DNA of 64,000 nucleotides from Bartonella sp. DB5-6 (GTDB lineage Bacteria > Pseudomonadota > Alphaproteobacteria > Rhizobiales > Rhizobiaceae). Location: contig NZ_JH725120.1 of NCBI RefSeq assembly GCF_000278115.1, positions 1-64,000 of the forward strand. The letters are read 5' to 3'. Below, one piece after another: positions 1-28,935 of this stretch; within the stretch, counting starts at the first letter, position 1, and every line of letters begins with the position of its first letter. The notes beneath the pieces were generated by a model, which saw only the letters and a program-made list of their open reading frames with translations, had not been told where the DNA came from and ran no database searches. Position numbers and translations under genes: made by a program.

Positions 1-798
1 TCACGCTAAAGACTAAATCATGACCTGCTGCCAATTGTCCGCTATTTTCAAGCTTCCCTGTTTTGATGACAAAATCTCGTGCCGCTAAAACCGATAAGGC
101 CTATGCAGACGCATAAAAGTTTAAGTTCAAGAGAGAGCCTGTCTGCTTGCAGCATAGGTGTTAACTTCTTCTCGGTTGCAGATGGCGCAACGCCTGTAGC
201 ACTATATTCATCGCGAAAGATGACATATCCGGCCACAAGGCTTACAATGATGTCAAACACACAAAGTGCCGCAATCAAACCATTATAGCCAGCCCCAGCT
301 GCTACCCCTCGCAGGCTGGTTGCTTCTAAGAGATAACCACTAAGTGCTGCTCCCAAAAAGGCACCAATCTGCACCACTGTTTGCATAATGCGGGAAACCT
401 TTTGAGCGCTAATATAACCTTTAAGCGCTAGTTTGGTATTATAAGTCTCGAGCGTACTTAAGGTGATCAAAGAGAGATAACCGATAGAGATAGATACAGC
501 AATAAAACCAGAAGAAGAATCAGCTTAATGAAAAAGAGCAATCAATATAAGGAGGCTATAGATGATGATCCGCCTTTTGTATAAATCTACCAACCTCAGC
601 GAAGACCTAATGCGGACAAGCCCGCTTTTTTTCAAAAGATAGAGTGTAAGGGTTCCCAAAGCCATGGACACACCCAAAAAAAACCGATGAAGATGTTATG
701 CGATAAACGTTCCAAAGATTACTTAAGAATAGCACCATATCAGAAAGATAAAGCACAACAACAAGCCCATAAAACCGAAAAAACAGTTCTTTGCGCAC
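1..798 (-). pseudogene. MFS transporter remnant, runs off left edge
   Basis: Only pieces of a Major Facilitator Superfamily permease remain. A probable GTG start at 798 sits just after a GGAGG run and opens a first membrane helix (residues like RFYGLVVVLYLSDMVLFLSN). The frame shifts near 660, and a second stretch (LVDLYKRRIIIYSLLILIAL) ends at an in-frame TAA near 525. The reading resumes to about 90 with further helices (VVQIGAFLGAALSGYLLEA). Another frameshift near 80 lets a last frame read on to the window edge. Several independent lesions make function very unlikely. The substrate cannot be told. The gene points away from the oxygenase and dehydrogenase remnants to its right, so it need not belong with them. 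Confidence 0.6.
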
Positions 799-1434
799 GC
801 CCCCCTCCACATATTTTAAAACACGCAATATGATGATCAGTACACATATCTATAAACAAACTAGTGCACGTATTGCTGAGTATGTCAAGTTTTTCGATAG
901 AAGAATAATATAAGTCTGACCGTTAACATTTATCGTAGCGATAGCTCATTTTCGAGAGATTGAATAGCGAGGGTGGCTGGTGTTTTTGCTGCGCTTATTG
1001 CAAGCCATCTTACCAATAGTTCTTTCGTAAAAGTGATAATTTTGCGCACCATTTCATCTGCTAACAATACCGCAAAAATTTATGATCTAAAATGCGGTTA
1101 TAGCGCGCAAATCTACATACCAACATGATCTTTGAATTTCTTCAAAGTCGATCCTGCACGCTTTCCATAACCTTCAAACTTGGTATCAAGCTTATTACCC
1201 GTATATGCCCCACACAAAAAGCATACTTTGGAAAATTTTATAGATATAGCCAACAAAACGATAGATTTTGCAAAGGATAATATTTTTTAAAGTTATGAAA
1301 TCAATAGTTATACGGGTGTAATTAAAAGAAAATTGCCAAAAATATCAGACGCAATATCATCGATATATTATATTACACAAAATCATTAAAAACACGCTTA
1401 ATGCTTTTTTGATATATAAAAAAGAAGGCACAAA
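799..1434. other. Intergenic, decayed sequence, no supported gene
   Basis: About 640 bases with no intact gene. On the minus strand near 930-1200 there is a broken open stretch (fragments such as MVRKIITFTKELLVRWLAIS and LDTKFEGYGKRAGSTLKKFK) interrupted by stops. It may be another dead gene, but I do not recognise it. Confidence 0.4.
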
Positions 1435-1742
1435 GTGTGGGATGTTTTTATATACCAATTCTGCATTGAGGCAAAAAAAGGAATACAAGGAAATCCTATA
1501 TCTGAAAACATTCATAAAGATGGTCATACATTCATAAATATGCACATGATCGACAAACACAATATTGAAGGTAGCACATCCTATATCTATGATAAAAACA
1601 GAAAAAATAAAAGAGTTCACTTGCAAGGGAACTTGAGAAGAGAATACCACTAGGTGATATGGAAATATACCATTCAGCTTCTGCAATTTCATCAATAAAT
1701 GATGAAGACGGTTTAAGGGGTTTAATGGTTATCGATTATAGA
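1435..1742 (+). pseudogene. 2OG-Fe(II) dioxygenase remnant (PF10014-like)
   Basis: The C-terminal part of a 2-oxoglutarate/Fe(II)-dependent dioxygenase resembling Pfam PF10014, a family that includes L-isoleucine 4-hydroxylase. Visible hallmarks are the WDVFIYQF opening, an HKDG stretch carrying the H-x-D iron ligands, and the NIEGSTSYIYDKN segment (family pattern N-x-x-G-G-x-S-x-I-Y-D). A frameshift near 1620 moves to the frame reading LARELEKRIPLGDMEIYHSA, with the distal iron-ligand His, and ends RGLMVIDYR. The N-terminal half is missing or unrecognisable. The overlapping minus-strand ORF is only a shadow. It lies 11 bases before the hydroxyacid dehydrogenase remnant on the same strand, so both were probably in one operon with the FAH-family gene and the LysE remnant. 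The family call rests on motif recall, not a search. Confidence 0.6.
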
Positions 1743-1753
1743 TAAAGAATCCA

Positions 1754-2694
1754 ATGAAAATTGCGATAACCGATAGAAAAACTGAAATGAGTGAATTTGA
1801 AAAAAACACTGGCTGTTTTGGGCGCTAAATTTTATTTCTTCAACACTTTAAATGAAGATGACTTTCCTGACAAAATTCTGGAAAGAGGTTGATGTCTTAT
1901 TAATCTTGCATGCAAAAATAACAAAGAAAACAGCCAAGAAATTATCTAAGTGTAAATAGCAGTACGCTTCGGTATCAATTATGACCAAGCAGATTATGAA
2001 GCGCTAAAAAAACACGGCGTTGAATTTACTAATAACCCTTCTTATTGTACAGATGAAGTAACTGACACTGACTTAACCATAATTTTGGAGGGTTGCAGAC
2101 AAATCTCCAAACATAATGATTTAGCAAAAAACACCATAAAATATAGCAAGAAAACAATCTTAAAAACATTCTGCCAAAAGTATAAAACCATTGGATTGAG
2201 TAAAATCAGAAAAGCAACACGAGAATGGTTAAAACCTTTTGGATTTAAAGTAATTATCTATGATCCATATATTGGTGAAAATCTTGCCTCATCTTTCAAC
2301 TTCAAACTTTTCGAAGATATTGATTACCTTTTAGAAGAATCTGATGTAGTATCACTACACTGCTCTCTTACAAAAAGACAACAGGAATGATTAATTCAGA
2401 ATTTCTCAAAAGATGAAGAAAAACGCTATTTTAGTGAACACAGCGAGAGGTAAAATCCTGAGTGATTTTGATTGTTTAGAAAACCATCTAAGGGTGAAGC
2501 CTGAGTTCCATATGCTTGTTAATGCTTTACCTATGGAACCACCAAGTAGCGACCCTCTCATTAAAGCTTGGAGAAACAATGCTAAGTGGCTGTCGTTAAG
2601 GTTAATAATTCACCCACACAACGCATATTTTTCAGAAAACTCACATATCGATATGAGAAAAGATGTTGTTTTCACAATTATATCTTGCTTATAA
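1754..2694 (+). pseudogene. D-isomer-specific 2-hydroxyacid dehydrogenase, broken
   Basis: A decayed NAD-dependent D-2-hydroxyacid dehydrogenase of the SerA/CtBP/lactate dehydrogenase type. It starts MKIAITDRKTEMSEFEK, hits a stop after about 24 codons, and continues in other frames. Recognisable blocks include VDVLLILHAKITKK, then a Rossmann-domain piece (WLKPFGFKVIIYDPYIGENL), EESDVVSLHCSLTK, and, after a TGA at 2388, KKNAILVNTARGKILS, the conserved NTARG block. The C-terminal His region survives as LIIHPHNAYFSE. The glycine motif is degenerate and there are at least three frameshifts or stops, so it is dead. An intact gene of the same superfamily lies at 12583. The FAH-family gene starts 31 bases after its end. 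Confidence 0.75.
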
Positions 2695-2725
2695 AAAAAG
2701 AAAATGAAAGACTTGGTGGTCTCCT

Positions 2726-3334
2726 ATGATTAATAACATTTACTGCGTTGGACTCAATTATGTTGAACATGCTCATGAACTAGGCAATGTTGTTGAAGAT
2801 AAACCGGTTATATTTAGCAAACCGAACAGTTCACTCATCTTAGGAAATAAAATTTATCTCCCTGATTTTTCTAAAGAAATTCATTTTGAGACTGAAATTG
2901 TGCTTAGAGTCTCAAAGGATACTTTTATGGTCAGTGAGATAAAGGCTGAAGAATGCTACGATGCAGTAGCTGTAGGTCTTGACCTTACCGCAAGGGATTT
3001 GCAAACAAAACTGAAAGAAAAAAGACTTCCTTGGCTTTTGTCTAAAGGATTTAAAGGAGCTGCATACGTCTCTGACTTCATAAACAAGGAAAAAATAAAC
3101 AACCCCATAACCTTTGCAATGAAATTGAATGGCGAAACGAGGCAATTTGGCAATACAAAAAATATGATATTCAACTTTAGGAAAATAATATCATTTTTAA
3201 GTAGCCACATTCAGCTAAGACGTGATGATATCATATATACGGGGACTCCACAGGGAGTAGGGAAACTTTCTAAATTTGATAAAATAGAATTATATCTCGA
3301 AGATAAATTAATTTCAGAGTTAGAAGTAAAATGA
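2726..3334 (+). CDS. Fumarylacetoacetate hydrolase family protein
   Basis: An intact 202-residue FAH-family protein, close in length to the short bacterial members (about 210-220 residues) that hydrolyse, decarboxylate or isomerise beta-keto acids using a divalent metal. Visible signatures are CVGLNYVEHAHELG at the start, the metal-binding FETEIVLRV (E-x-E) block near residue 52, GLDLTARDLQ near residue 92, and YTGTPQGVGKL near residue 171. A GGTGG run 7 bases before the ATG may be the ribosome site. It sits between a dead hydroxyacid dehydrogenase and a dead LysE exporter, whose ATG overlaps this stop codon (ATGA). It is the only open gene in this relic operon, so it is either still used or only recently freed from selection. 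The real substrate is unknown. Confidence 0.85.
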   Translation: MINNIYCVGLNYVEHAHELGNVVEDKPVIFSKPNSSLILGNKIYLPDFSKEIHFETEIVLRVSKDTFMVSEIKAEECYDAVAVGLDLTARDLQTKLKEKRLPWLLSKGFKGAAYVSDFINKEKINNPITFAMKLNGETRQFGNTKNMIFNFRKIISFLSSHIQLRRDDIIYTGTPQGVGKLSKFDKIELYLEDKLISELEVK

Positions 3335-3945
3335 ATCATCAAATACTCACCTTTTTTATTGTTTCATTTTTTTAGTCATCTCACCAAACCTGAATATGGC
3401 CCTTATCATCGAGAATGCAACGAGACTTGGAAAAGAGAACGCGTTTGCGAACGTTTGGGGATTGTGTACAGCAACATATGTGCATGAGTCACTTTCCATA
3501 TTAAGTGTATCAGCACTCATTCTCAACAAGACGCTGTTTTTTTAGTAAAACTCATGGGTGGTGGCTATTTATTATATATGGGAGTTAAATAGATTAAATC
3601 TGGAATAAACAGCTTAAATTCAAAAAAATATCAAAGAATGAAAAGCATTCTGTAGGTAAACAAAGTTTTTCACCAGCTATATGGACAGTTTTCTGACACA
3701 AATATTAAACCCCAAAGTATAAATATTTTATATAGCAGACTTTCCAAAATTCTTGACTTCTGGCAGTAGCATTAAAAATGCTTTTAACTTGTAACAATAC
3801 ATTCCCTCAACATATTTACATGGTTTACTTTAATGACCATTTTTATATCATTTGCTAGCGCCATTTTAAAAAAGCAAGGCGTAAAAGGATATATAGCGAC
3901 AGGGACAGTTTTATCTCTGTTTTCTTTTTTCATTTTCTTTGGATA
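3331..3945 (+). pseudogene. LysE/RhtB-type amino-acid exporter remnant
   Basis: It begins with an ATG overlapping the stop of the FAH-family gene (ATGA), a sign of former translational coupling. The start MNHQILTFFIVSFF meets a stop at once. Changing frame gives MALIIENATRLGKENAFANV and then LCTATYVHESLSILSVSALI, followed by KLMGGGYLLYMGVK. This is the typical first half of LysE/RhtB exporters, with the GGGYLLYMG helix. The second half is more eroded (pieces like LKKQGVKGYIATGTVL), with several stops. The family exports amino acids and derivatives. This copy cannot make a full protein. Confidence 0.7.
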
Positions 3946-4349
3946 ACTTCATTTATCGATAATAAGTCACACAGCCGATAGACAAATCTCTCTATGATTT
4001 TGCTTTCCTATCGCTGTTAATATCGACATCTTTGCTCCCACAAAAGCTCATACTACGACTAATTCTTCCTCGTTTTTTCTGTATAATTGAACTATGAGTT
4101 AACTTAACGTACTTTTCTAATTTTAATAAATTAAAATTCAGTATAGTCTATTTGATGATGTTTTGAGCTATCACATTTACCTCACCATCACCCAAAAGCG
4201 CTACAAATTGCAGATTATAAGCGCTGGCAAACTCCTAGCAGTCTTTCATCTCATAGCTATCTCTCATACTGATTCAGATAATCCAAGTAATTCAAAACAA
4301 CATCAAAACAATGAGATTAAATTGACCAATCCACCCCCTCTTCGTTGAA

Positions 4350-5690
4350 AATAATGCTGGAATTTCTATTAAAACTTTCACTGATAGTTACATTAAAGAT
4401 ATGAATTTATCAATCAATACAGTTAATCTCAACAATTTGGAGACCCATACTGACATTTTATGAGCAGCTGATACTTTTTTTGAAAGACAAAGATTTTAAG
4501 GTAATACCCAACAGTACCTTATGTTAAGCACAAATCATTTTACTTCAGAAAAGAAAATCAAAATTGCAAAAGATAGAGATGTATACTTTTGATCTGAAAA
4601 ACAACATGACATGGGCGTTGAAGACTAGCACATAGAAAAAAATAAAAATAGAAAACTGCTTGTATCAACCAAAGTTTACATTTTGATATTTTTGTGCTTA
4701 ATCTCGATAATAGCTCTATTATTTTTGAAAGATCGACAAAAGAGCATTACCAAACATTGCATATAGAAAACCTAAAAACACAGCAATCCACAACATAACG
4801 AGAAATGCACAGATTCACTTAAATGCCTCATGGAGTGATGGCACTGCAATAAATTTGCAAAAAACTGATCAACTTCTCATTCACAGTAATTTTTCAGGCT
4901 CCACAGCAGCTTATGTCACAAAATGTGAAGGAAATAATTTAAAGCAAAAACTCATGCTTCTTCAAATGCGCGTAATCTTACACTTAATTCAAATATCTAG
5001 AAATGCAAAACAGGACTATTTCAAACCTATAAACCTCTACATCACAAGATATGTTGCACCGGATAAATATCTGCTGCGTGCCTATAACTAAAATCAAACC
5101 AAAAGAAAGCCAATATTGAACAAAATCTTTTTGATAAAAAGAAGAAAAAATTCTAGAATTTCCATTTGCAACCTGAAATTCTTGCTTCCAATCCCAGCTA
5201 TAATGCAACAGCACACACACTGTTGTGTAACAAATGGCTAATTACGTTATCTACCAAACGCGCCTTTAGCCGACATGAGAACATCAATCTCGAAAAAATG
5301 AAGAAAAAAACAGATTATTCCTCTACATTTATGGAAATGTAGGAACTTTATCTTCTAAGCAGAATCCTCTTAAATATGGTTATGGTGCTGATATCCACTA
5401 TACTGCTCTACAAAGTAGTATCGCATTAGCTGTGCTTAAAGGACAAAACACCACAACTCACTCTGGTTTTCTAAATACCTATGGGCAAGCGTTTTTTACC
5501 CCCAAAGGATACACTTGCATGTTCAACGCAAAACTTTCACAAGATTTTGCCAAACGGTGTAAATACATGAGAAGACTTCTTATTCACAACTGTAAAATAA
5601 AAGATTCTGTAAACTTCTCACTTCCTTTGTAACAAAGAAAGCAACTGCCTTCCACTTATAATACCAATAAAACGATTGTGGAAATCATTT
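4350..5690 (+). pseudogene. Autotransporter (type V secretion) remnant
   Basis: A heavily shattered Bartonella-type autotransporter. Passenger fragments include GSTAAYVTKCEGNN and, near 4960-5090, a stretch ending YVAPDKYLLRAYN, resembling the end of a pertactin-like beta-helix. The barrel begins near 5300 with a frame reading LYGNVGTLSSKQNPLKYGYG, then ALQSSIALAVLKGQNTTTHS and FLNTYGQAFFTPKG. These barrel repeats recur in Bartonella surface autotransporters. At least five frameshifts or stops are needed to thread it, and no signal peptide or C-terminal Phe is left in frame. Earlier passenger pieces may reach back to about 4150, but I cannot place the start. It is most likely a dead paralogue of genes elsewhere in the genome. 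Confidence 0.6.
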
Positions 5691-6134
5691 AAAATTTTCT
5701 GTCATTGGAGACTTTTTCTTCAGTAAGACGGCAGCTCTATAATTTATTAGACATAACGACTGAGGATAAAAGACTCTCTTTATTATGACATCAAAAACAA
5801 TTATAGGACATATAAACGGGGAGGATTTTCTATAACCCATGAGGTTCCTTATAACTGTTAAGACAGCTTAACAATGCCTGCCATAATAATACTAAGTCTT
5901 CTTATCAACCATTTATCGGCCATCTCAGCGATAACTTAAAATTTTGTAAAATATCTGTTGCGTTGTTGTGGAATAGATATTCCTGTCAGTTAGATATTCT
6001 TTATTGGTTATCCACATGAAATCATAAAAAACGTTTTTCCCCCTTTACTCCTCATTTATATCATGCTTCGATACAGAGGATTACTTTTTTCAGTGTAATT
6101 TTGAATTTTAAATAATTAAAGGGAACCTCAAAAA
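5691..6134. other. Intergenic region before cycA
   Basis: About 440 AT-rich bases between the autotransporter relic and cycA. They must contain the cycA promoter, but I see no convincing sigma-70 box pair. A GGGAA ribosome site lies about 10 bases before the cycA ATG. I see no tRNA, other gene or strong hairpin. Confidence 0.35.
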
Positions 6135-7535
6135 ATGAATTATAAACAAACTTTAAAAAATAATCCTCAGGAGAAGTTAAAACGTGGATTAGATAACCGT
6201 CACGTACAACTTATAGCCCTCGGTGGAGCTATCGGAACGGGTCTCTTCATGGGATCAGGAAAAACAATTAGCGTAGCAGGCCCGTCCATCATACTTGTTT
6301 ATGCTATTATCGGTTGTGCCTTATACTTTGTAATGCGTGCTATGGGAGAATTATTGCTTTCTAATTCACAATATCGGTCTCTTATTGATTTTTCAACCGA
6401 TATGCTAGGACCAGGAATTGCTTTTTTTGTCGGCTGGAGCTATTGGTTAAGCTGGGTTGTAACTGGAGCCGCGGATATTATTGCAATCATCGCTTATACG
6501 CACTTTTGGTGGCCAGAACTCAACCCATGGATTATCGTCTTCTCCTGCATTATCTTCTTTTTAACCCTTAATCTCCTTGCTGTAAAATTTTTCGGTGAAC
6601 TTGAATTCTGGTTTGGTCTTATCAAAGTCATAGCAATTGTAGCATTAATTATTGTTGGGTTTTATATGATCGCTACTGGCTTCACCTCTCCAAATGGTAC
6701 TGTTGCCTCTCTCGGTCATGTATGGAATGGTGGAGATATATTTCCTCGGGGAGTTGCAGGTTTTTTTGCCGGATTTCAAATTGCTATTTTTTCTTTTGTT
6801 GGTATAGAGATTGCCGGAACAACTGCTGCTGAAGTCAAAGAACCTAAAAAAGTTCTACCAAGAGCAATTAATGCAATACCAGTTCGTATTGTACTGTTTT
6901 ATATCTTTTCTCTCGCTGTGATTATGTCAGTCACACCTTGGGATCAAGTTATTCCAGAGAAAAGCCCCTTTGTCTCGATGTTTTGGCTTGCTGGCATTCC
7001 GATAGCTGCTGGTTTGGTAAATTTTGTTGTTCTCACCTCTGCTGCTTCTTCAGCAAATAGCGGTATTTTTTCTACCAGCCGCATGATATATGGGCTTGCA
7101 ACACAAAAAGGTGCGCCTCGCCTTTTGGGCAAACTTTCTAAACACCATGTTCCAGCCAATGCCCTATTCTTTTCTTGCTTATGTATTTTATTAGGATACA
7201 CAATTGCATCACTATCTCCAAGCATCATAAGTGCTTTTACAATTGTGACTAGCATTTCAGCTATTGCATTTTTATTCGTATGGTCTGTAATCTTAGTTAG
7301 CTATATTGTGTATCGTCGTAATCATCCTCAACTGCATACTGAATCTATATACAAAATGCCAGGAGGCGTTGTCGTATGCTGGGTTATTTTAGCTTTTTTT
7401 GCTTTCATGGTCTATTTGTTAACATTAGAATCTGATACTCTAACAGCTTTAAAATATGGTGTAGTATGGTTTATTCTCTTAGGCGTAATGTATTTCCTGT
7501 TTATAAGAAAAAAAACTGCTCAAAATAAAAAATAA
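6135..7535 (+). CDS. cycA: D-serine/D-alanine/glycine permease (CycA-like)
   Basis: A 466-residue inner-membrane amino-acid:H+ symporter of the AAT family within the APC superfamily. It closely tracks E. coli CycA from memory: the start has NRHVQLIALGGAIGTGLFMG (first helix with the G-A-I-G-T-G substrate motif). GTTAAEVKEPKKVLPRAINA follows helix 6, SPFVSMFWLAG lies in the middle, and VVLTSAASSANSG follows. About twelve hydrophobic helices are evident. It takes up D-alanine, D-serine, glycine and possibly L-alanine, useful both as nutrients and for peptidoglycan D-Ala supply. It stands alone on the plus strand, followed 25 bases later by a strong terminator, so it is monocistronic. Family certain; exact substrate range inferred. 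Confidence 0.88.
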   Translation: MNYKQTLKNNPQEKLKRGLDNRHVQLIALGGAIGTGLFMGSGKTISVAGPSIILVYAIIGCALYFVMRAMGELLLSNSQYRSLIDFSTDMLGPGIAFFVGWSYWLSWVVTGAADIIAIIAYTHFWWPELNPWIIVFSCIIFFLTLNLLAVKFFGELEFWFGLIKVIAIVALIIVGFYMIATGFTSPNGTVASLGHVWNGGDIFPRGVAGFFAGFQIAIFSFVGIEIAGTTAAEVKEPKKVLPRAINAIPVRIVLFYIFSLAVIMSVTPWDQVIPEKSPFVSMFWLAGIPIAAGLVNFVVLTSAASSANSGIFSTSRMIYGLATQKGAPRLLGKLSKHHVPANALFFSCLCILLGYTIASLSPSIISAFTIVTSISAIAFLFVWSVILVSYIVYRRNHPQLHTESIYKMPGGVVVCWVILAFFAFMVYLLTLESDTLTALKYGVVWFILLGVMYFLFIRKKTAQNKK

Positions 7536-7560
7536 AATCTATATACAAAGAGTACATCAA

Positions 7561-7586
7561 AAAGGGTAACCAAAGTTACCCTTTTT
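7561..7586 (+). terminator. Rho-independent terminator after cycA
   Basis: A perfect 10-bp stem (AAAGGGTAAC pairing with GTTACCCTTT) around a CAAA loop, followed by more T. It lies 25 bases after the cycA stop. The symmetric A/T flanks mean it may also serve transcripts arriving from ilvC on the other strand. Confidence 0.85.
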
Positions 7587-7631
7587 GTACATAAAGCATA
7601 AAAGCTGTTTACATAATATTTCATATGAACT

Positions 7632-9607
<1,976 letters not shown>

Positions 9608-10342
9608 TTACTCTAGTAACCGAATGAAACGCTGAACAGTGTCATGCATTCCATACTCTAACGCATCAGCAATAAGTCCATGACCAATAGACACTTCATC
9701 AAGCCAAGGAATACGGTTAACAAGAACAGGAAGATTCATAATTGTTAAATCATGTCCTGCATTAACACCTAATTGCAGCTCTTTAGCTCTTCTTGCTGCT
9801 AAAACAAGCTTATTTAACTCCTGATCTTGCATTTCCTTATACTTAAACGCACCACCGTAAGGCCCAGTATAAAATTCCACACGATCAGCACCAATCACTT
9901 TAGCAATATCAAGACCATCTACAGTAGGGTCAGCAAATAATGACACACGAATTTTTTTTTCTTTCAAACGCTTAATAATAGGTGCTAAAAATTCTGCATC
10001 TTGAAAAAAATTCCAACCATGATCAGAAGTTGACTGAGCTGGATCATCAGGAACAAGAGTAATCTGATCCGCATATTTTTCCGCTACATCCAAAAATCTA
10101 TCGCTTGGATAACCTTCGATATTAAATTCAGCAGTAGGAAACGTATTGTTTATTAAACAATGTATATCTGGCAAATCAGCAAAACGAATATGCCTTTCAT
10201 CAGGTCTCGGATGAACCGTTAAACCAGCAGCACCAGCTTTAAGTGCTATATGCCCAATATTCTTGATATTTGGCCATGGTAGATTACGCCGATTGCGTAA
10301 AACAGCAATAGCATTAAGATTAACCGAAAGCTTCACTGCCAT
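9608..10342 (-). CDS. pdxJ: Pyridoxine 5'-phosphate synthase
   Basis: PdxJ, 244 residues, condenses 3-amino-2-oxopropyl phosphate with 1-deoxyxylulose 5-phosphate to give pyridoxine 5'-phosphate, the last ring-forming step of the DXP-dependent vitamin B6 pathway. Visible family features are [15 protein letters not shown] at the start (substrate-binding N-x-N), [13 protein letters not shown] with catalytic His, EFNIEGYP with catalytic Glu, [10 protein letters not shown], and NAGHDL and [11 protein letters not shown] near the end. The ATG at 10342 is preferred over an upstream in-frame TTG because AGGAG lies 6 bases before it. It is followed downstream by decayed DNA, and 80 bases separate it from the helicase gene on the same strand. 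Confidence 0.95.
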
Positions 10343-10422
10343 GCACAACTCCTATTTTCTGTATATAATTCTAAAATCAGAAAAAGATACATCCACCAGC
10401 ACAATTTTAAAGAATAAATTTT

Positions 10423-11544
10423 CTATCGAACAATTGTTAATCGCTCTGCCGCACGCGTAATTCCCGTATAAAGCCAGCGCGCATACATATCACGAAATGC
10501 AAAACTTTCATCAAATAAAACCACGTTATCCCATTGAGACCCTTGCGCTTTGTGAACAGTTAATGCATACCCATAATCAAAATCATCATACCTTTTTTTT
10601 AATTGCCATGAAATCTCATTATCAGGGTTATCAAATACTGCTTTTAAAAGCTTAATCTTTGCCACCCCACGCTCACTTTCTTCTGGTTTAACGAGAAGAT
10701 TAATTCCCAGTTTAACCGTTTCCTTCTGTGAAGTCATCACTTTCCATAAAGAACCATTCAACAAACCTTTAGCAGGATCATTACGCAAACATACAAGTTT
10801 ATCACCCGCTTGTGGATAATCTGCTGTAAACCCCTTCAGCACACGTAAACGTTTATTATAAAGGTGACGTGTTCGGTTCACCCCTACCAACACTTGATCA
10901 GCATCCAAAACCAATTGTTGATCCACCTCTTTACGCGTAACAACGCGAGCTTCACCATAATCACCATAAGCAATATCGCGTCCTTGGCGCACATTCATAG
11001 CGAGACGAACGATCGGATTATCACGCGCTTGCCGATGAATTTCTGAAAGAAGAAAATCTGGTGTGCCATTGGAAAAAAAACCTCCTCCTGATATAGGAGG
11101 CAACTGACCTGGATCACCAAGAACAAGAATTGGTGTCCGAAAACTCATCAAATCACGCGCTAATTGCTCGTCGACCATCGAACACTCATCAACAATGATA
11201 AGTTTAGCTTGCGCAGCAGCACTTTTCCGATTCAATGCAAATGTTGGTGCAATAGACTTTTTTCCTGTTACCTCATCGGAAATTTCTTCTTCTCCACGCG
11301 GACAATAAATCAATGAATGAATAGTACAAGCATTACTCGCACCTTTAGAACGCAAAACTTGTGCCGCTTTGCCTGTAAACGCAGCAAATTGGACAGAACC
11401 ATCAACTGTTTCAGCAAAATGACGAGCAAGTGTCGTCTTCCCTGTCCCCGCATAGCCAAAGAGACGAAAAAGCGGAGAACGCCCCTCTCTCAACCACGTA
11501 GCAACAGCCTTCAAGGCATTATCCTGTTCCGGTGAAAACTGCAT
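10423..11544 (-). CDS. RecD-like ATP-dependent helicase (AAA/UvrD-like)
   Basis: A 373-residue superfamily 1B helicase core. The Walker A motif GYAGTGKTTLA is near residue 29. FAAFTGKAAQVLRSKG (motif Ia) follows, then IIVDECSMVDEQLA (Walker B), LVLGDPGQLPPISGGGFF (motif III), and the C-terminal YALTVHKAQGSQWDNVVLFD and WLYTGITRAAERL (motifs V and VI). This matches compact RecD2/Pif1-like ATPases found alone in many rhizobial genomes, shorter than RecD of RecBCD and lacking its N-terminal domain. Likely role is DNA repair or processing; no partner is encoded nearby. The ATG start fits the usual N-terminus (FSPEQDNAL). Confidence 0.85.
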   Translation of the reverse strand: MQFSPEQDNALKAVATWLREGRSPLFRLFGYAGTGKTTLARHFAETVDGSVQFAAFTGKAAQVLRSKGASNACTIHSLIYCPRGEEEISDEVTGKKSIAPTFALNRKSAAAQAKLIIVDECSMVDEQLARDLMSFRTPILVLGDPGQLPPISGGGFFSNGTPDFLLSEIHRQARDNPIVRLAMNVRQGRDIAYGDYGEARVVTRKEVDQQLVLDADQVLVGVNRTRHLYNKRLRVLKGFTADYPQAGDKLVCLRNDPAKGLLNGSLWKVMTSQKETVKLGINLLVKPEESERGVAKIKLLKAVFDNPDNEISWQLKKRYDDFDYGYALTVHKAQGSQWDNVVLFDESFAFRDMYARWLYTGITRAAERLTIVR

Positions 11545-12133
11545 AGTTTATCAAAATAAGATTCGCATAAAAAGAGCAAGTGTTTTGAAAATAAAAACAC
11601 TATCAAGAAAAGTTTTTGTCGTTACGAATTTCTGATACACAGCCGTCCTACTACTTTCACAGAATAATGATCAATTATTTACCCATTGCTTTTTCAAAAT
11701 ATTGTAACAATCTAAATTTTATCTATACATCGATCTTCTTGGTAACACCTTGATACTTATCAAATATAATTTTTTATAACAGTAACACCAACAATGGAAT
11801 ATGCATATCTTAAATTTAAAATAACACCTATATACGCTTTTTCTAACCAAAATTTAGAATGAAAAAAGAGCATTGCAATTGCAAAACCCTCGCTAGAAAA
11901 AATGTCCTAACAGGATAAAAATAATGTAATTTTATGAACACTATTTTACACAATCAATCAGCTTTCTTGCACATAAAAATAAAATACAACCACTATTAAG
12001 AAATAATAATTAAATATATCAAAAACCTTTTGGCAGAAATAGAAATAGCTTTCAAAAAAACTACTTAATCCTATGATGATACACCTATAAAGTTCCTATT
12101 CCCCTCTTATCATGATTTTAATAAATTTACTCT
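11545..12133. other. Intergenic, no gene seen
   Basis: About 590 very AT-rich bases between the helicase start and the restriction-gene relic. I see no open frame worth calling and no RNA gene. A 12-bp palindrome (TTGCAATTGCAA) lies at 11873-11884, but without a T run I do not call it a terminator. Confidence 0.35.
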
Positions 12134-12380
12134 TCATGCTACGAATAAGTTATATCTCAACGAATAAAGAGAGATATCACGCTTATATGAAGCACGCCTT
12201 ATCTCGCACAAATATGTAGCTTTTTCTGTTTCTACAATAAAATCTGGTTCGTAAGTATGTCCTTCTTGGTAGTCTATTATAAAAAAACTGGGACACGGTT
12301 TCAGTCCAGCTTAGCACTTCAGGTCCGTCCTCTAGAATATGAGAAAAGTGCAATTCTCCATCTACTGTATCAAACTTTTT
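12134..12380 (-). pseudogene. Type III restriction (Res) subunit C-terminal remnant
   Basis: Two minus-strand frames join into a short protein tail. The first reads KFDTVDGELHFSHILEDGPE and VLSWTETVSQFF. After a frameshift near 12270 the second reads DYQEGHTYEPDFIVETEKAT, then YLCEIRRASYKRDI, and stops at 12134. The Y-x-PDF-(9-14)-CEI pattern recalls the PD-(D/E)xK nuclease end of type III restriction endonuclease subunits, with EIR where active enzymes have E-x-K. The helicase domains and the modification gene are gone. The call rests on a short motif and is tentative. Confidence 0.45.
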
Positions 12381-12582
12381 CTTTTTGTCGCAATGTTTTA
12401 AAGTTTATAAAAACTAACTGATTAATGCTATTCTTATTCTAGAAATAACAATGACATCAAGGGGTATAATTTGTTAATAGGCTTGGCGTTATGTCAAAAT
12501 ATCAGCGATGAGATTGCTTTTTGGTTGTTTTAGAAATGAAATAATGAGCTCAAATATTGATGAATGAAACGGGAGGTTTAAA

Positions 12583-13509
12583 TTGAAAATATTAATTCCA
12601 GATGACTATCAAAAAGCCACCCTAACATTACAGTCTATTACAAAATTAATGAAATCGCATGAAGTGCTGGTTATAAATAATTTAGCTAAAGAATGTGATT
12701 TAGAAGATAAGCTCAAAGAGATAGATATTCTTATCTTAATCAGAGAGCGAACTATAGTTGATAGAGATCTTCTCCTGAAACTGCCAAATTTAAAATTAAT
12801 CTGCCAAACAGGCCCTATAGGTTCCCATATTGATATAGAAGCTTGTAGAGACTTAGGAATTGAAATATTAGACGGTGGTGGAGATCCAACTTCTGCTGCT
12901 GAATTTGCATGGCTCTTAATTATGTCTGCGCGTAGAAAACTCTATGAATCTGTGTCTGACATGAAAAAAGGACGATGGCAAACAACATTTGGCAACCAAA
13001 TGAAAGGGGCTACTCTTGGAATATTCGGGTTTGGGCGTATTGGTAAAATGGTTGCTCAATATGCTCAAGCTTTTGGCATGTCCATTTTGGTTTATGGGAG
13101 CGAGCGTTCAACGCAAGAAGCAAAAAATTTAGGTTATCATTTTACGCATTCAAAAGATGAATTTTTTACACGTCCTGACATTATATCCGTACATTTACGT
13201 TTAAGCGATAAAACCAGAGGAATCATTCAATTAGATGATCTATTGAGCATGAAACCTCATGCTATTTTTGTCAACACAGCACGTTCAGCTTTGGTTGAAA
13301 AAGGGGCGATAGAAAAAATACTAAGTTTGGAAAATTCAACTTACTTTGCACTGGATGTTTATGACAACGAGCCAGTATATGAGAGCAAATTATTGCAATC
13401 AGACAGAGTTCTTTGCACACCGCATCTGGGCTATGTGACTGGAGAAAGCTTTGAAAATTATATTGAAAAAGCTTGCCAAAATATAGCGTCTTTTATGAAG
13501 AGCGCTTAA
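12583..13509 (+). CDS. D-isomer-specific 2-hydroxyacid dehydrogenase
   Basis: An intact 308-residue NAD(P)-dependent dehydrogenase that would reduce a 2-oxo acid to a D-2-hydroxy acid, or the reverse. The nucleotide fold shows LGIFGFGRIGKMVAQYAQAF (G-x-G-x-x-G) near residue 146. HLRLSDKTRGII and FVNTARSALVEK follow, with ALDVYDNEPV (catalytic Glu region) and TPHLGY (catalytic His) near the end. An unusual TTG start is supported by GGGAGG 6 bases upstream. It leads a plus-strand group whose next two members, an MFS transporter and a clavaminate-synthase-like oxygenase, are dead. Members often act on phosphoglycerate, lactate, glyoxylate or hydroxypyruvate; the substrate here is unknown. Confidence 0.85.
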   Translation: MKILIPDDYQKATLTLQSITKLMKSHEVLVINNLAKECDLEDKLKEIDILILIRERTIVDRDLLLKLPNLKLICQTGPIGSHIDIEACRDLGIEILDGGGDPTSAAEFAWLLIMSARRKLYESVSDMKKGRWQTTFGNQMKGATLGIFGFGRIGKMVAQYAQAFGMSILVYGSERSTQEAKNLGYHFTHSKDEFFTRPDIISVHLRLSDKTRGIIQLDDLLSMKPHAIFVNTARSALVEKGAIEKILSLENSTYFALDVYDNEPVYESKLLQSDRVLCTPHLGYVTGESFENYIEKACQNIASFMKSA

Positions 13510-13739
13510 TGCCGGCTAAGCCAATGTTTGTAAAATTTATCTTATATCGCTAGCGTATTAAATTTGCACTACACATAACAGCTTATTTCTTTAAATTAAG
13601 CATATTCCTTAGCTTTAATATTAATACCAATCGTATTGACAGATTTTTATGTAATCCGCATAAAATAACTAATTTATTGTTACAATCATTATTAAAAAAG
13701 GCTACTTCATTGGAATACACTTTAACTGAAGGGGGCTAA

Positions 13740-14932
13740 GTGAGCAATAATAAATTTATAGAAAAAAATATTATAGATGGATTGTATTGCTTGTTGCCAC
13801 TATCGCTCAAGCATGAGCCTGCTTCTTTGTTTAAGGGATTGGTCCTTTAGCTGAATTTTTTTAAGAAGGATTTCTCGCTTAGTGACTCTCAGATAGGTTT
13901 GCTGTCTTCAGCAGCGCAGTTTCTACTTATAGCTGGCGAATTACTAGACAAATCTAACGAGCGCTATATTGTTGGAGTTGGCGCGGTCGGCGTTTCTGTC
14001 ACTCTTTTGTTGGGAGCAATCGCAGATAACTATATTTCCCTTTTGATCTGTTTGCTAATTGTAGGAGGATTTTATAGTTCTGCTCAATCCAGTGGCGCTA
14101 AATCTGTTTCTTCATGGTTTCCACAATCGCAACGCGGATTTGCAATGGGAATAAGGCAGGCGGGACTACCATTAGGTGGGGCATTAGCTGGGATAGTTCT
14201 TCCTGCTAGTGCATTTGTCTATGGCATACAAAGTGCGTTTTTGGTCGGTGCCATAGTTTCTTTTTTAGGTGGATGTACATTTATTATTTTTTATCACTCA
14301 CCAGCAAAAGTTGTAGCTATCGTTCCAGAAAGCAAGGCAAGAGTTTCGTTCTATGCAAATGTAAGGTCTCGTCTTGCGATGTTGGCTGCGCCGCATATGA
14401 AGAATATTATTTTTTCAGGCGTTTCACTTGTGATCGTTCAATATGTTTTAACCATTTTTATAACGATTTATTTTTATAGAATCTATCACCTGTCTCTAGA
14501 TAAAAGTGCTTATTTGTTTTTTGTTTCACAGGCTTCTGGTGCCTTAGGAAGAATTATTTTAGCAGCGTGGAGTGATTATTGTAGAAACGGACGATTTTTT
14601 CCTGTCTTGTTTTGCATGATTGCAGTCGTTTTTGGATTTTTAATATTAATTTTGGGCATGAGTGGATCCATAATTTATTTAACTATTTTATCTGCTTGGT
14701 TAGGTTTTTTGGATTAGGATGGCATGGCCCTTGGGTTGCTTATATTGTAGACTCTTCGCCGAAAGAAAGCGTTGGCTTTTCTCTGGGTTTAGCAATGTCT
14801 GTAAATCAAATCGCAATTATTACTGCTTCACCATTATTTGGATTAATCCAAGATTTTACAGACACTTATTTACTAACATGGCTGATTTTAATTTTAATGA
14901 TTATTTTTTCACTTTTCTTAATAAAAAAGTAG
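13740..14932 (+). pseudogene. MFS permease, frameshifted and with stops
   Basis: A nearly full-length MFS transporter, now broken. A GTG start follows AAGGGGG; the true N-terminal reading (IVLLVATIAQA, then IGPLAEFF) contains two or three in-frame stops and a frame change before 13890. A long open part follows with QIGLLSSAAQFLLIAGELLD, then SSWFPQSQRGFAMGIRQAGL and PLGGALAGIVLPA, typical of MFS helices 1-5. A TAG at 14715, one base out of frame, separates this from the last two helices, which read GLGWHGPWVAYIVDSSPKE to the end at 14932. It lies 230 bases after the dehydrogenase and 27 bases before the oxygenase relic, consistent with one former operon. The best open segment is 272 residues, so a partial protein could still be made. 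Confidence 0.8.
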
Positions 14933-14959
14933 GGAAATATAATTGAGGAGGAAATTATA

Positions 14960-15956
14960 ATGATAAATGAAAATACTTTTGAATTGAACAATGGCGAAAG
15001 AGACAAACTTTGGGAGGCTTCAGACCATGTTATTTATGATCCATACGGTAGTATTGAATATTCGGTTGAGCTAAAAAAACAGCATTTTCGCTGCTACCAC
15101 ATAGAATATTGACAATTCTTATAAAGAAAAAGGTGTCTATTACTCCTAGACCATATTTAATCTTTGAAAACCTTCCAATTGATAGACAAATTAATACGTC
15201 ACCTACTCCTTATAATTTAGATGCGTCTTGTAAAAGTGGCTATATTAGCGAAAATTTAATTATGATGTTTTCTTTATTAATCGGAGAGCCTTATTCAATT
15301 AAGTTTGAAAGCAAACATATAGTAAATAACCTAGTTTCTTTAGAGGATAATAAAAAAGATTATACAGGATTAGGATCTGACGTTGAGTTAGATTTTCATA
15401 TAGAAAATGCTGCACTAAAATTTATAACTGGTTTAAATTTATCTCCTAAAAGGATACTTTTATCTGGTATTCGCAATGAAGTTGATGGCCCGTTAACGAG
15501 AATATCTGTTGCACATCTAGCTTTAAAACTTTTAAGTGAGAAGGATTTGAATAGCTTAAGGGATAATTTATATATAATTAATGTTCCTATAGATGGAGAA
15601 AAAATGGGGTAACCTCTACAAGTAAAGTGCCCCTAGTTCGAGGAGACAGTGAATTCCCAGATATCGGCACTGTTTTTTATCTGGGCATGTTAGAACCATA
15701 GTCAAAAAAAGCCAAGGAAGCTTTAGATCAATTTTATGAAGCTACTAAGGCTGTATCTTTTGGAATTGATGTACAACCAGGAAGATTATTATAGATTGAT
15801 AACAGAATGGCTCTACACTCTAGAGAGAAATTTTTTGGGTCATTTGATAGGAAAATCCAATGCGGTGGATTCAAAGAGTATTTGTGTCTGCAGATTTATG
15901 GAATCATAGATATGTGGAACAAATATAAAGAAAGAGTATTTGATTTTCAATGTTAA
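14960..15956 (+). pseudogene. Clavaminate-synthase-like (TauD/TfdA) oxygenase, broken
   Basis: Relic of a 2-oxoglutarate/Fe(II) oxygenase of the clavaminate synthase-like/TfdA-TauD superfamily. GAGGAGG precedes the ATG. Frame one reads MINENTFELNNGERDKLWEA to about 15090. Frame two (15109-15612) shows LIFENLPIDRQINTSPTPYN and LGSDVELDFHIENAALKF, where H-x-E are iron ligands, and GIRNEVDGPLTRIS. Frame three continues LVRGDSEFPDIGTVFYLGML and FGIDVQPGRLL, then NRMALHSREKFFGSFD, which carries the distal His and the Arg that binds 2OG. The iron and 2OG residues are all still readable, so decay seems recent. It is the last gene of the group starting at 12583. Such enzymes commonly hydroxylate free amino acids; the substrate here is unknown. 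Confidence 0.7.
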
Positions 15957-16618
15957 TGTCCTGATAATGATATGACGTTGAGTATTATTCTGGTTTATAT
16001 GTTAACTACACATCTCATATGTAGAGACTTCTCCCGCATAATCAGGTGAAGTTACTACCTGATTATAAGCTATGGTGGCCAATTGATTTTCTATGGCTGC
16101 GTTTGATCTTTGTTATTTTTTCCCTTCCTTTCAAGCCGCTAAGGGGATTCTCCTATCAAGCCCTTGAAAGAGCGATTTGGAGTAATTTCATAATGCGAAA
16201 CCAAAACATAGTGACAAACTATTGTTTTCATAGGCATGACGGTTTGCATGGCTTCACCCTTCAAGCACGGTGGCTTTTTTCTTGCACGATGGAATCTTTC
16301 ATATATGAGACAACATAATTAATTTATAACAGATAATTCAATATATTATCTAAAAAATGCACCGAAATAGCTATTAATGTGAACATATGAATTAAAAAAC
16401 AAACATCGCGTACAAATAAATTCAAACATAATTGCACACGACTTATAACATTTTTTAGATGAACAAATAATAATACACCCCCCTCTCTTTAAACAAAGAA
16501 TGAAAATCATAAAATGAGCTCTAAGGATAATAGGAACTCTCCACAAAGAAGAGACAGAGATGAAGACTCCAAAGACTTCATCATCACCATCCTTTACTAT
16601 TTTGTTAATATACTCATT
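15957..16618. other. Intergenic between oxygenase relic and ilvB
   Basis: About 660 bases. A plus-strand ORF at 16046-16318 has no recognisable protein character. On the opposite strand (about 16247 down to 16131) a short frame reads KTIVCHYVLVSHYEITPNRS before a stop; I cannot assign it. A weak hairpin (GATGAAG/CTTCATC, 16559-16582) lies after the ilvB stop but lacks a T run. Notably, no ilvN (acetolactate synthase small subunit) is found here, its usual place. Confidence 0.4.
16038..16066. repeat. Perfect 10-bp inverted repeat
   Basis: ATAATCAGGT and its exact reverse complement ACCTGATTAT lie 9 bases apart, about 80 bases after the oxygenase relic. There is no T run on either side, so it is a poor terminator. 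It may be an operator-like site or a leftover structure. A second, weaker inverted pair (CTTTCAAG/CTTGAAAG) lies at 16128-16170. Confidence 0.45.
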
Positions 16619-18418
16619 TTATACAAGAATCTTTCCTTCGGAAGAAACAGCATTTGCAACGGCTTCATCATTAGCTTCATCAGGTAACAGCATATCATTA
16701 TGCGCACACCCAGATGGAATCATGGGAAAACAGTTTTCTAAATTAGCAACACGACAATCGAAGAGAACTGGCTTATCACAATCAATCATTTGCTGAATTT
16801 TATCATCAAGTTCATCTGGATGTGAACAACAAAGACCAACCACTCCGTAAGCTTGTGCCAATTTTACAAAGTCAGGCATCGATTCCGTATAAGAATGAGA
16901 AAGACGATTGCCATGCAACAATTGCTGCCACTGTCGGACCATACCCATATACTGATTATTTAAAATAAAAATTTTCACTGGTGTATTATGTTGAATTGCT
17001 GTTGCGAGCTCTTGAATATTCATCTGAATTGAAGCATCCCCAGAAATACATAACACAAGCGCATCAGGGTGTGCTATTTGAACACCAATAGCAGCAGGAA
17101 GACCATACCCCATAGTTCCAAGACCACCAGAAGTCATCCAATGTTTTGGCTCATCAAAACGATAATACTGTGCAGCCCACATCTGATGCTGCCCAACATC
17201 AGTCGTGACATAAGCATGCACATCTTTGGTAAGTGCATAAAGCCGTTCAAGAGCATATTGTGGCATAATGACATCTTTTTTCTTCATATATGCTAATGAA
17301 TTACGAGCTTTCCAGCGATTGATTTGCTTCCACCACTCCTTACGACTTTCGCTTTTAAATATTGGCTGCTGCATATGCAAGCGTCGATTGATATCTCCCA
17401 AAACATCAGCTACATCGCCAATAAGTGGAACTTCTACTTTTACAATCTTATTGATAGAAGAAGGATCTATATCAATATGAATAATACGCGCATGAGGAGC
17501 AAACGCATCAAGCCGCCCAGTAATACGATCATCAAACCGTGCACCAACAGCTAACATAACATCACAATCATGCATGGCCATATTAGCCTCATAGGTTCCA
17601 TGCATTCCAAGCATTCCAAGCCAATTCTTGCCAGAAGCAGGATAAGCACCAAGTCCCATAAGCGTCGAAGTGATCGGGAAGTCTCCTAGTTGAACCAAAT
17701 CATGCAAAAGCTGTACAGCTTCAGGGCCCGATGAAATGACACCACCACCAGAATAAATAACAGGGCGTTTTGCTTCTGCTAAAAGAGAAACAGCACATTC
17801 GATAGTCTTAGTATTCTCTTTAAACTGTGGACGAGAACGCAGAGATGCCGAAACTTGAGGAGCTCTATAAACACCTGAAGCAAATTGCACATCTTTAGGA
17901 ATATCAATCAAAACCGGCCCTGGACGTCCTGATTGAGCAATAGAAAAAGATTCATGAATGATTGCTGCAAGATCATTCACATTTTCGACCAAACAATTAT
18001 ATTTAGTACAAGACTTTGTAATACCAACCGTGTCAGCTTCTTGAAAACCATTTGTTCCAATCACAGTTGTTGGAACTTGACCAGAAAAACAAACAAGTGG
18101 GATAGAATCCATAAGCGCATCTTGCAAAGGTGTCACAGCATTCGTTGCCCCTGGACCAGAAGTCACCAGCATAACGCCTACTTTCCCTGTACTACGTGCA
18201 TAACCTTCAGCAGCATGACCCGCTGCTTGTTCATGACGCACCAAAATATGACGAACTGCATCTTGTTGATAAATAACATCAAAAATAGGAAGAACAGCCC
18301 CACCAGGATAACCAAAGAGATGTTTAACCCCTTGATCAATAAGAGCTTGAACCACCATTTCAGCACCCGACATTATTTGTCCGTCTGCATTCTCTTGCAA
18401 TCTTGGATGATCTGTCAT
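16619..18418 (-). CDS. ilvB: Acetolactate synthase large subunit
   Basis: Thiamine-diphosphate-dependent acetohydroxyacid synthase catalytic subunit, about 599 residues. It joins two pyruvates, or pyruvate and 2-oxobutyrate, in the first common step of valine/leucine and isoleucine synthesis. Seen in order: [14 protein letters not shown], then [15 protein letters not shown] with the catalytic Glu, [17 protein letters not shown]-region motifs in the middle third ([11 protein letters not shown]), and near the C-terminus [14 protein letters not shown] leading to [10 protein letters not shown], the ThDP-binding GD...NN motif. The ATG at 18418 is chosen because the upstream in-frame ATG (18445) sits at the edge of an attenuator hairpin, while GAGTGGGA precedes this one. 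No regulatory-subunit gene (ilvN/ilvH) follows. Confidence 0.93.
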
Positions 18419-18445
18419 TTTTCCCACTCGCCTACTTGGTAGCAT

Positions 18446-26817: not shown

Positions 26818-26831
26818 AGTTTCCTGTGCTG

Positions 26832-26860
26832 AATCAAAAGCCCTACTAGGGCTTTTGATT
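26832..26860 (+). terminator. Terminator after kgtP copy 1
   Basis: AATCAAAAGCCCTA and its exact reverse complement TAGGGCTTTTGATT flank a single C, giving a long stem followed by a short AT-rich stretch. It lies 15 bases after the stop codon. Confidence 0.8.
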
Positions 26861-27463: not shown

Positions 27464-27521
27464 ATCATTATACAATTGAATTTTGATGATACAAATCGTA
27501 AACAATTTTAAATAGAGAAAA
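27464..27521 (+). repeat. Upstream repeat A, before kgtP copy 2
   Basis: This stretch is nearly the same as 29217-29274 before copy 3. Shared blocks are ACAATTGAATTTTG, TACAAATC, TAAACAA and TTTAAATAGA, with only scattered changes. It extends to roughly 32 bases before the ATG of copy 2, so the promoter or leader was copied together with the gene. Confidence 0.75.
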
Positions 27522-27552
27522 GAAATATTAAATATTAAAAGGGAATTACTTA

Positions 27553-28860: not shown

Positions 28861-28875
28861 ATTTTCTATATGAAA

Positions 28876-28907
28876 TAAAAAAGCCTAAAAAAATTGGGCT
28901 TTTTTTT
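28876..28907 (+). terminator. Terminator after kgtP copy 2
   Basis: AAAAAAGCCTAA pairs with TTGGGCTTTTTT (one G-T wobble) and a T8 tail follows. The sequence is clearly related to the terminator after copy 3, as expected from segmental duplication. Confidence 0.8.
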
Positions 28908-28935
28908 CATTGTTGCATAAAAAAACATTTTGGTG

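What the first reader, a model, noticed from the sequence alone, without database searches (positions are those of the whole stretch)
1435..15956. Two decayed clusters, each with a 2OG-Fe(II) oxygenase, a D-2-hydroxyacid dehydrogenase and a transporter
Relic one (1435-3945) reads PF10014-like oxygenase, hydroxyacid dehydrogenase, FAH-family enzyme and LysE exporter. Relic two (12583-15956) reads hydroxyacid dehydrogenase, MFS permease and clavaminate-synthase-like oxygenase. The oxygenases come from different families, so this is not one duplication. The shared logic (hydroxylate an amino acid, process a 2-oxo or 2-hydroxy acid, export or import) suggests two related pathways for unusual amino acids, perhaps a small metabolite, that this lineage once carried and is losing. 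Only one enzyme in each remains open. The reading of motifs is direct; the pathway idea is inference.
Basis: partly seen in the sequence, partly recalled or inferred. Interest (0 to 1): 0.75.

Follow-up and report, generated by a model that had tools for sequence, protein, structure and literature searches.

The report
Two decaying metabolic operons, one surviving enzyme
Two broken small gene clusters in a Bartonella-like genome turn out to be real operons with open copies in related species: an old one from which most species that carry it keep only a likely metabolic clean-up enzyme, and a young block that seems to have passed between species before falling apart.

Summary
In detail: both gene lists are right, and only FAH (2726-3334) and one dehydrogenase (12583-13509) are open. 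Both were real operons: L069 has cluster 1 wholly open (PF10014 oxygenase, D-2-hydroxyacid dehydrogenase, FAH, LysE, with overlapping starts), L046 cluster 2 (dehydrogenase, MFS, clavaminate-synthase-like oxygenase).

They are not one story. Cluster 1 is old. Among 37 genomes with a trace, FAH is open in 31, LysE in 8, its dehydrogenase in 4, its oxygenase in 1; FAH is the only open gene in 23, and no genome keeps another gene without it. Where the dehydrogenase is broken, FAH dN/dS is still 0.13 and FAHD1's catalytic residues are kept. Best guess: it survives as an FAHD/OAT1-type enol-oxaloacetate tautomerase.

Cluster 2 is a 4.9-kb islet, found in 34 of 71 genomes. Of 20 others examined at the site, 14 have it empty (6 unresolved). 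It is the least diverged part of the window (the 5 lowest of 61 bins) although mostly pseudogenes, and its tree conflicts with its flanks: it probably moved between species, then decayed.

Substrates remain unknown. Outside the genus the oxygenase of cluster 1 adjoins LysE in 7 of 97 loci, FAH in none.

The parts
1240..1754 (+). Relic of PF10014 2OG-Fe(II) oxygenase (OX1), frameshifts and stops, 5' part not found
   Evidence: E 1e-13; own genome 1264-1611; aa 67-237 of the open homologue, 57-76% identity
1757..2730 (+). Relic of D-2-hydroxyacid dehydrogenase 1 (HAD1), stops and a frameshift
   Evidence: (aligned pieces 1800-2378 and 2407-2730, 63-79% identity)
2726..3334 (+). Open FAH/FAHD1-like gene, 202 aa; the surviving gene of operon 1
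   Evidence: PF01557 1e-43; FAHD1 1.7e-40
3331..3945 (+). Relic of LysE/RhtB-type exporter
   Evidence: aa 14-199, aligned 3369-3910, 55-56% identity, stops; the open homologue matches PF01810 at 1.3e-25
11720..16590 (.). Islet of about 4.9 kb, low divergence between species; the site is empty in other species (edges soft)
   Evidence: divergence trough; empty sites and where homology stops
12583..13509 (+). Open D-2-hydroxyacid dehydrogenase 2 (HAD2), 308 aa, TTG start; the surviving gene of operon 2 in the window
13677..14932 (+). Relic of MFS permease (2 stops, then a frameshift)
14960..15955 (+). Relic of clavaminate-synthase-like/TauD-type oxygenase (OX2); first frameshift at a run of seven A at 15073
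   Evidence: open homologue:
10423..11544 (-). Left flank of the islet: helicase-like gene (called RECD here), found in 71 of 71 genomes
16619..18445 (-). Right flank of the islet: acetolactate synthase large-subunit gene (ilvB; the name is from reading the sequence, no search was run on it)

Best explanation
Two metabolic operons of different age are decaying near each other. Operon 1 (OX1-HAD1-FAH-LysE) is old in the genus. In its intact form OX1 probably hydroxylates a free L-amino acid, LysE exports the product, and HAD1 and FAH handle the related 2-oxo/2-hydroxy acid (inferred). It has been lost many times, but FAH is kept. The most likely reason is a job outside the pathway: enol-oxaloacetate tautomerase (OAT1) repair activity, as measured by others for FAHD1 and E. 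coli YcgM. Operon 2 (HAD2-MFS-OX2) is a 4.9-kb islet between a helicase-like gene and ilvB. It spread between species by recombination after they had diverged, then decayed independently in most of them, leaving HAD2 in some and the MFS in others. Shown: intact copies, retention of and selection on FAH, catalytic residues, low divergence, tree conflict, empty sites. Inferred: substrates, direction of transport, tautomerase activity, the vehicle of transfer.
For: Intact four-gene operon with overlapping starts in L069; HAD1-FAH-LysE open in L042, L043, L071; open cluster 2 in L046. Gene states in all 37 genomes with a trace of this FAH: FAH open in 31, LysE 8, HAD1 4, OX1 1; FAH alone open in 23; no genome with another gene open and FAH not. 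FAH dN/dS 0.126 over 30 genomes, 0.127 in the 26 with HAD1 broken. FAHD1 positions G24, H30, E33, K47, E71, D102, R106, Q109, K123 kept in 30 of 30, E73 in 29 of 30. Minimum losses on the flank tree, 30 tips: LysE 15, HAD1 11, FAH 3. OAT activity of FAHD enzymes: PMC10825186 (passages). Cluster 2: dS 0.105 (HAD2) and 0.164 (MFS) against 0.50-0.58 for FAH and four genes between; the 5 lowest of 61 1-kb bins are contiguous at 12-17 kb; its distance is near 0.07 at most flank distances (rho 0.18), and each data set rejects the other's tree; empty sites.
Against: 20 of 71 genomes show no FAA-hydrolase gene or remnant, so the repair job is not indispensable in the genus, and FAH itself is broken in 6 of 37. 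No enzyme activity was measured. In cluster 2 the survivor differs: of 34 genomes HAD2 is open in 18, MFS in 11, OX2 in 3; HAD2 alone in 16, MFS alone in 7, which looks more like lag after recent arrival than selection for HAD2. The flank tree is built from three neighbouring genes, not the genome, and HAD1 of two genomes apart in that tree is 99% identical, so cluster 1 has recombined too. The AU test used 2000 replicates; the program asks for 10000. The 250 bases between HAD2 and MFS are as diverged as the helicase-like gene (0.123 against 0.122), and one bin outside the islet (47001, 0.092) is nearly as low as the islet's highest.
Confidence: 0.65

Rival explanations
1. Both clusters are ordinary ancestral genes lost during host-linked genome reduction; which gene stays open is chance.
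For: Decay is widespread and every gene of both clusters is broken in some species. In cluster 2 the survivor is HAD2 in some genomes and the MFS in others. A run of A breaks OX2 in many species.
Against: Among 37 genomes FAH is open in 31 and HAD1 in 4, and no genome keeps another operon-1 gene without FAH; at least 11 separate HAD1 losses on the flank tree against 3 for FAH; FAH dN/dS stays 0.127 where HAD1 is broken. Vertical descent does not explain the divergence trough at cluster 2.
Confidence: 0.15
2. FAH stays because it still does a hydrolase or decarboxylase reaction (acylpyruvate or oxaloacetate) on a substrate from elsewhere, not tautomerase repair.
For: Best solved relatives are FAHD1 acylpyruvases; FAHD1 is described as oxaloacetate decarboxylase and acylpyruvate hydrolase (abstracts; passages of PMC8398924).
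Against: In PMC10825186 the decarboxylase specific activities of ten FAHD enzymes are hundreds-fold to about 100,000-fold below their tautomerase vmax (table).
Confidence: 0.3
3. Cluster 2 is old and vertical; its low divergence reflects strong constraint or slow mutation.
For: HAD2 and MFS open copies show purifying selection (dN/dS about 0.2); the stretch between HAD2 and MFS is not less diverged than the flanking helicase-like gene.
Against: The trough includes pseudogenes and non-coding DNA: 11545-12582, 13510-13759 and 15960-16600 have median p-distances 0.108, 0.123 and 0.103, about the same as or below a conserved coding gene at 0.122, while non-coding stretches around cluster 1 align in few relatives (1 to 6 of 14 for bins 4001-5501). 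Synonymous distance is about a fifth (HAD2) to a third (MFS) of that of neighbours.
Confidence: 0.08

Closest known systems
Hil and IDO operons (PF10014 L-isoleucine dioxygenase operons of Pantoea, Pseudomonas, Bacillus thuringiensis; PMC3684760, passages seen)
   Same: PF10014 amino-acid dioxygenase with a dehydrogenase and an exporter in one operon
   Different: Here a D-2-hydroxyacid dehydrogenase instead of a short-chain dehydrogenase, LysE instead of RhtA/MFS, plus FAH; no ORF that I recognised as HilA, HilR, HilP or HilD in the 9.2 kb of L069 (no profile search for them); OX1 scores 49 bits against the HilB cut-off of 350
FAHD/OAT1 family (human FAHD1, E. coli YcgM; PMC10825186, passages seen)
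   Same: Size, sequence, and the FAHD1 catalytic and metal positions checked
   Different: Carried in an amino-acid-hydroxylase operon; below the YcgM model cut-off (148 against 201 bits)
Clavaminate-synthase-like amino-acid hydroxylases (asparagine oxygenase, arginine and lysine hydroxylases, GntD)
   Same: OX2's open homologue aligns over most of its length to asparagine oxygenase, arginine beta-hydroxylase and L-lysine 3-hydroxylase
   Different: E-values only 4e-13 to 1e-12; substrate not predictable. Its nearest plasmid relatives (six at 41-43%) sit with MFS and ATP-grasp genes in the three that could be read (a fourth has no annotation); no ATP-grasp gene was recognised here
Interspecies recombination in Bartonella, including the gene transfer agent BaGTA (PMC6899734, passages seen)
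   Same: DNA exchanged between species by homologous recombination
   Different: No link of this islet to BaGTA was tested

Membership tests
PF10014 2OG-Fe dioxygenase | Pfam score above gathering cut-off | tested here: met
   Open copy 174.5 bits against 23.1; window piece 51.9 bits
PF10014 2OG-Fe dioxygenase | Iron and 2OG ligands (HxD...H, Arg; roles recalled) | tested here: met
   H159, D161, H210, R225 invariant in the 9-sequence alignment; the window relic keeps HKDG and YHSAS in two different frames
PF10014 2OG-Fe dioxygenase | Hydroxylation of a free L-amino acid | not testable with these tools
   -
HilB (NF042428) | Curated cut-off | tested here: not met
   49 bits against 350
FAHD/OAT1 | FAHD1 catalytic and metal residues | tested here: met
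   All ten positions checked are present in the window copy; 30 of 30 genomes for nine of them, E73 29 of 30.
FAHD/OAT1 | YcgM model PRK10691 cut-off | tested here: not met
   148 bits against 201 for the L069 copy; the window copy was not scanned with it
FAHD/OAT1 | Enol-oxaloacetate tautomerase activity | not testable with these tools
   -
LysE exporter PF01810 | Pfam cut-off | tested here: met
   90.4 bits against 25.6 for the open copy in L069; the window relic is identified by alignment only
Clavaminate-synthase-like / TauD PF02668 | Pfam cut-off | tested here: met
   44.8 bits against 27 for the open copy in L046; no Pfam match for the window pieces
GntD / VioC / clavaminate synthase equivalogs | Curated cut-offs | tested here: not met
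   82.7 against 345, 60.8 against 418.6, 65.6 against 450 bits
D-2-hydroxyacid dehydrogenase (HAD2) | Nucleotide-binding glycine motif and Arg, Glu, His triad (roles recalled) | tested here: met
   First Gly of the motif, R, E and H in 16 of the 16 open copies compared; two more open copies were not compared
Horizontally spread islet | Divergence well below flanks, tree conflict with flanks, empty sites | tested here: met
   conflict is with a tree of three flanking genes only

The most novel reading that the evidence does not exclude
A metabolic islet (HAD2-MFS-OX2), now seen in 34 of 71 species of one genus, moved among them by recombination into a single site after they had diverged, and was then broken in nearly all of them. 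Near it, an older operon was dismantled many times while its FAH gene was captured as the replacement for the lost ancestral FAHD repair enzyme, so that a pathway enzyme outlived its pathway.
Probability: 0.45. Interest if true: 0.65.

Novelty: new variant of a known kind. Interest (0 to 1): 0.5.

Why it matters
It gives a natural case of a pathway enzyme kept after its pathway is gone, with repeated separate losses to test it on, and points to a testable general reason (enol-oxaloacetate repair). It also shows that neighbouring relics in a shrinking genome can have very different ages, so reading them as one lost trait can mislead. If the islet swept through the genus, its short-lived benefit is a question about host or vector metabolism that can now be asked.

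Tried and rejected
One shared pathway or one duplication: rejected; the dehydrogenases are 26-29% identical, the oxygenases belong to different families and the clusters differ in age. Membership in the Hil operon family: rejected. A common ancestral frameshift in OX2: rejected as a marker, because the break lies at a run of A where species lack 0, 1, 2 or 3 bases against the open copy. OX2 in the order: 2 genomes other than the window's among 397, 26-28% identity. Neighbours of single genes elsewhere: a 44% HAD2 relative in Vibrio lies with adenylation, ATP-grasp and MFS genes, but a 44% one in Pantoea does not; two 39-40% HAD1 relatives have no oxygenase, FAH or LysE annotated beside them; of the three nearest MFS relatives one (52%) lies with a cleavage enzyme, an aminotransferase and RidA, one (46%) with nothing telling, one (52%) is unannotated. 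The MFS has no BLAST match to the MFS genes of the ATP-grasp clusters. An earlier count of open HAD2 and MFS (16 of 35 and 7 of 35; 15 and 7 of 30 tips) missed genomes whose cluster 2 had not been fetched; one search replaces it. One search had an orientation error for several loci; one search replaces it. Which amino acid is the substrate could not be advanced. No structure was predicted.

Literature: searches (PMC open subset) listed no paper whose title or abstract start describes these clusters in Bartonella. [quoted passage not shown] florenciae and absent or pseudogenes in B. tribocorum, which may or may not be these genes.
Full report
What is there. Piece by piece, cluster 1 matches PF10014, 2-Hacid_dh and FAA_hydrolase; the LysE relic is seen only by alignment to an open relative. 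Cluster 2 matches 2-Hacid_dh and MFS; its oxygenase relic is seen through an open relative that matches PF02668 above its cut-off and the GntD, clavaminate synthase and VioC models below theirs. Only FAH (2726-3334) and the second dehydrogenase (12583-13509) are open. The genome has 2.13 Mb in 25 contigs and the window starts at a contig end.

Intact versions. The genus search holds 71 genomes. One (L069, genome G070) has operon 1 wholly open: oxygenase 237 aa, dehydrogenase 329 aa, FAH 202 aa, LysE 210 aa, each start overlapping the stop before. Three more have an open dehydrogenase-FAH-LysE with a broken oxygenase (L042, L043, L071). Cluster 2 is wholly open in L046, genome G013 (dehydrogenase 308, MFS 423, oxygenase 333 aa), 1 of the 34 genomes with a trace of it.

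The surviving FAH. 37 of 71 genomes have this FAH or a remnant. With the region fetched for all 37, FAH is open in 31, LysE in 8, the dehydrogenase in 4, the oxygenase in 1 (open: at least 92% of the reference aligned without stop). FAH is the only open gene of the operon in 23, and in no genome is another gene open while FAH is not (genome-wide counts agree for the dehydrogenase, 4 of 71, and the oxygenase, 1 of 71). On a tree of flanking genes with 30 tips, the minimum number of separate losses is 11 for the dehydrogenase, 15 for LysE and 3 for FAH. FAH has dN/dS 0.126 over 30 genomes and 0.127 among the 26 in which the dehydrogenase is broken, against 0.06-0.16 for four neighbouring genes. 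Ten positions of human FAHD1 (numbering taken from the alignment; roles of G24, H30, E33, E71, D102, R106, Q109 and K123 from passages of PMC8398924; K47 and E73 recalled) are kept in 30 of 30 genomes, except one at 29 of 30; the neighbouring R25 varies. In each of the 31 genomes with an open copy it is the only FAA_hydrolase match at E 1e-8. Another 14 genomes (2.2-2.9 Mb) have only other FAH types, 32-37% identical in the 13 that measured, and 20 have none. PMC10825186 (passages) reports that FAHD enzymes, E. coli YcgM included, are fast enol-oxaloacetate tautomerases that protect succinate dehydrogenase, with little decarboxylase activity. I therefore think FAH stays for that repair job. 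This is inference; the 20 genomes without any FAH speak against it being indispensable.

Cluster 2 is younger and moved. Synonymous divergence between species (median) is 0.105 for HAD2 (114 of 120 pairs; pairs with dS up to 0.05 dropped, which can only raise it) and 0.164 for the MFS (21 pairs), against 0.50-0.58 for FAH, an amino-acid permease, ilvC, pdxJ and the helicase-like gene (ilvC named by reading). Against 14 relatives the median nucleotide identity of the window is 90-96% in the 500-base bins from 12001 to 16500, mostly pseudogene, and 74-89% in the bins from 6001 to 12000 and 16501 to 17500. Over the 64 kb and 7 relatives, the five lowest of the 61 one-kb bins with enough data are the five contiguous ones from 12001 to 17000; the next, 47001, is nearly as low as the fifth. 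In 30 genomes the median cluster-2 distance is 0.070-0.080 at every flank distance above 0.04 (rank correlation 0.18, against 0.51 between the two flanks), and each alignment rejects the other's tree (AU 0.0015 and below, 2000 replicates). Of 37 loci, six were left out by name beforehand (two of G035, a second piece of G002, G033, G023, G010) and one (G017) fell to a coverage filter. The helicase-like gene is in 71 of 71 genomes. I fetched its neighbourhood in 20 genomes without cluster 2 at the site (19 of the 37 without any trace, and G023, whose relic lies on another contig): in 14 ilvB lies 330-2380 bp away with no trace of the cluster, in 6 ilvB was not in the fetched stretch. In genomes with the cluster the gap is 2243-5455 bp, 4.5-5.5 kb in 27 of 32. 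In 11 empty sites compared, homology with the window stops near 11.58-11.73 kb and resumes near 16.59-16.65 kb (one weak 70-base match in G023 lies further in). The simplest reading is an islet of about 4.9 kb carried between species by recombination in the flanks, then broken separately: HAD2 is open in 18, MFS in 11, OX2 in 3 of 34; HAD2 alone in 16, MFS alone in 7, none in 7. Unlike FAH, no one gene survives throughout. Interspecies recombination and a gene transfer agent are known in Bartonella (PMC6899734, passages); a link to this islet was not tested. A few genomes have the cluster or pieces of it elsewhere or split (G023, G035, G017, G002).

How the operons may have worked. Operon 1: PF10014 enzymes with known activity hydroxylate free L-amino acids and sit beside dehydrogenases and exporters (PMC3684760, passages). 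Among 97 loci with OX1 homologues outside the genus, a LysE gene overlaps or lies within 75 bases of the oxygenase in 7 and within 1 kb in one more; FAH is present in none and a dehydrogenase in one. So 'hydroxylate and export' looks like a recurring core, though in a minority of loci, and the dehydrogenase and FAH are additions that I saw only in this genus. OX1 is distant from everything found (up to 37% identity). Operon 2: the oxygenase is nearest to six plasmid-borne proteins of Pantoea, Rahnella and Burkholderia (41-43%); the three whose neighbours are annotated lie with MFS and ATP-grasp genes. A 44% relative of HAD2 in Vibrio lies with adenylation, ATP-grasp and MFS genes, one in Pantoea does not. 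The MFS has 52% relatives, one of them in a neighbourhood that looks catabolic. Import, hydroxylation and oxidation of an amino or carboxylic acid, or a shortened small-metabolite route, both fit. Neither substrate can be named.

Verdict.

Noticed in passing
window 14960-15955; run of A at 15073: The cluster-2 oxygenase gene has a run of A near codon 38 where species lack 0, 1, 2 or 3 bases against the open copy; in G038 the rest of the frame is open, so slippage could still give product.
   Followed up: partly
window 48-828, - strand: Fragments of what looks like another decayed membrane transporter at the contig end (weak MFS_1 match, E 0.008).
   Followed up: no
window 7535-7632; L042 8148-9554: Some relatives have two tandem amino-acid permeases beside ilvC; the window keeps one (6135-7535).
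   Followed up: no
window 4100-5650: About 1.5 kb of decayed coding-like sequence; four pieces tried have no Pfam match.
   Followed up: partly
window 25510-30627: Three open sugar-transporter/MFS genes of 435-440 aa in a row on the + strand.
   Followed up: no
G017 C1:1229590 and C2:155810: One genome has a 119-aa partial second copy of the helicase-like flank next to its displaced cluster 2.
   Followed up: no
L042 and L071 (G043, G069): The cluster-1 dehydrogenase of these two genomes is 99% identical although they are apart in the flank tree, so cluster 1 has recombined too.
   Followed up: no
window 31125-31463: tmRNA gene with tag ANDNYAEARLAA.
   Followed up: no
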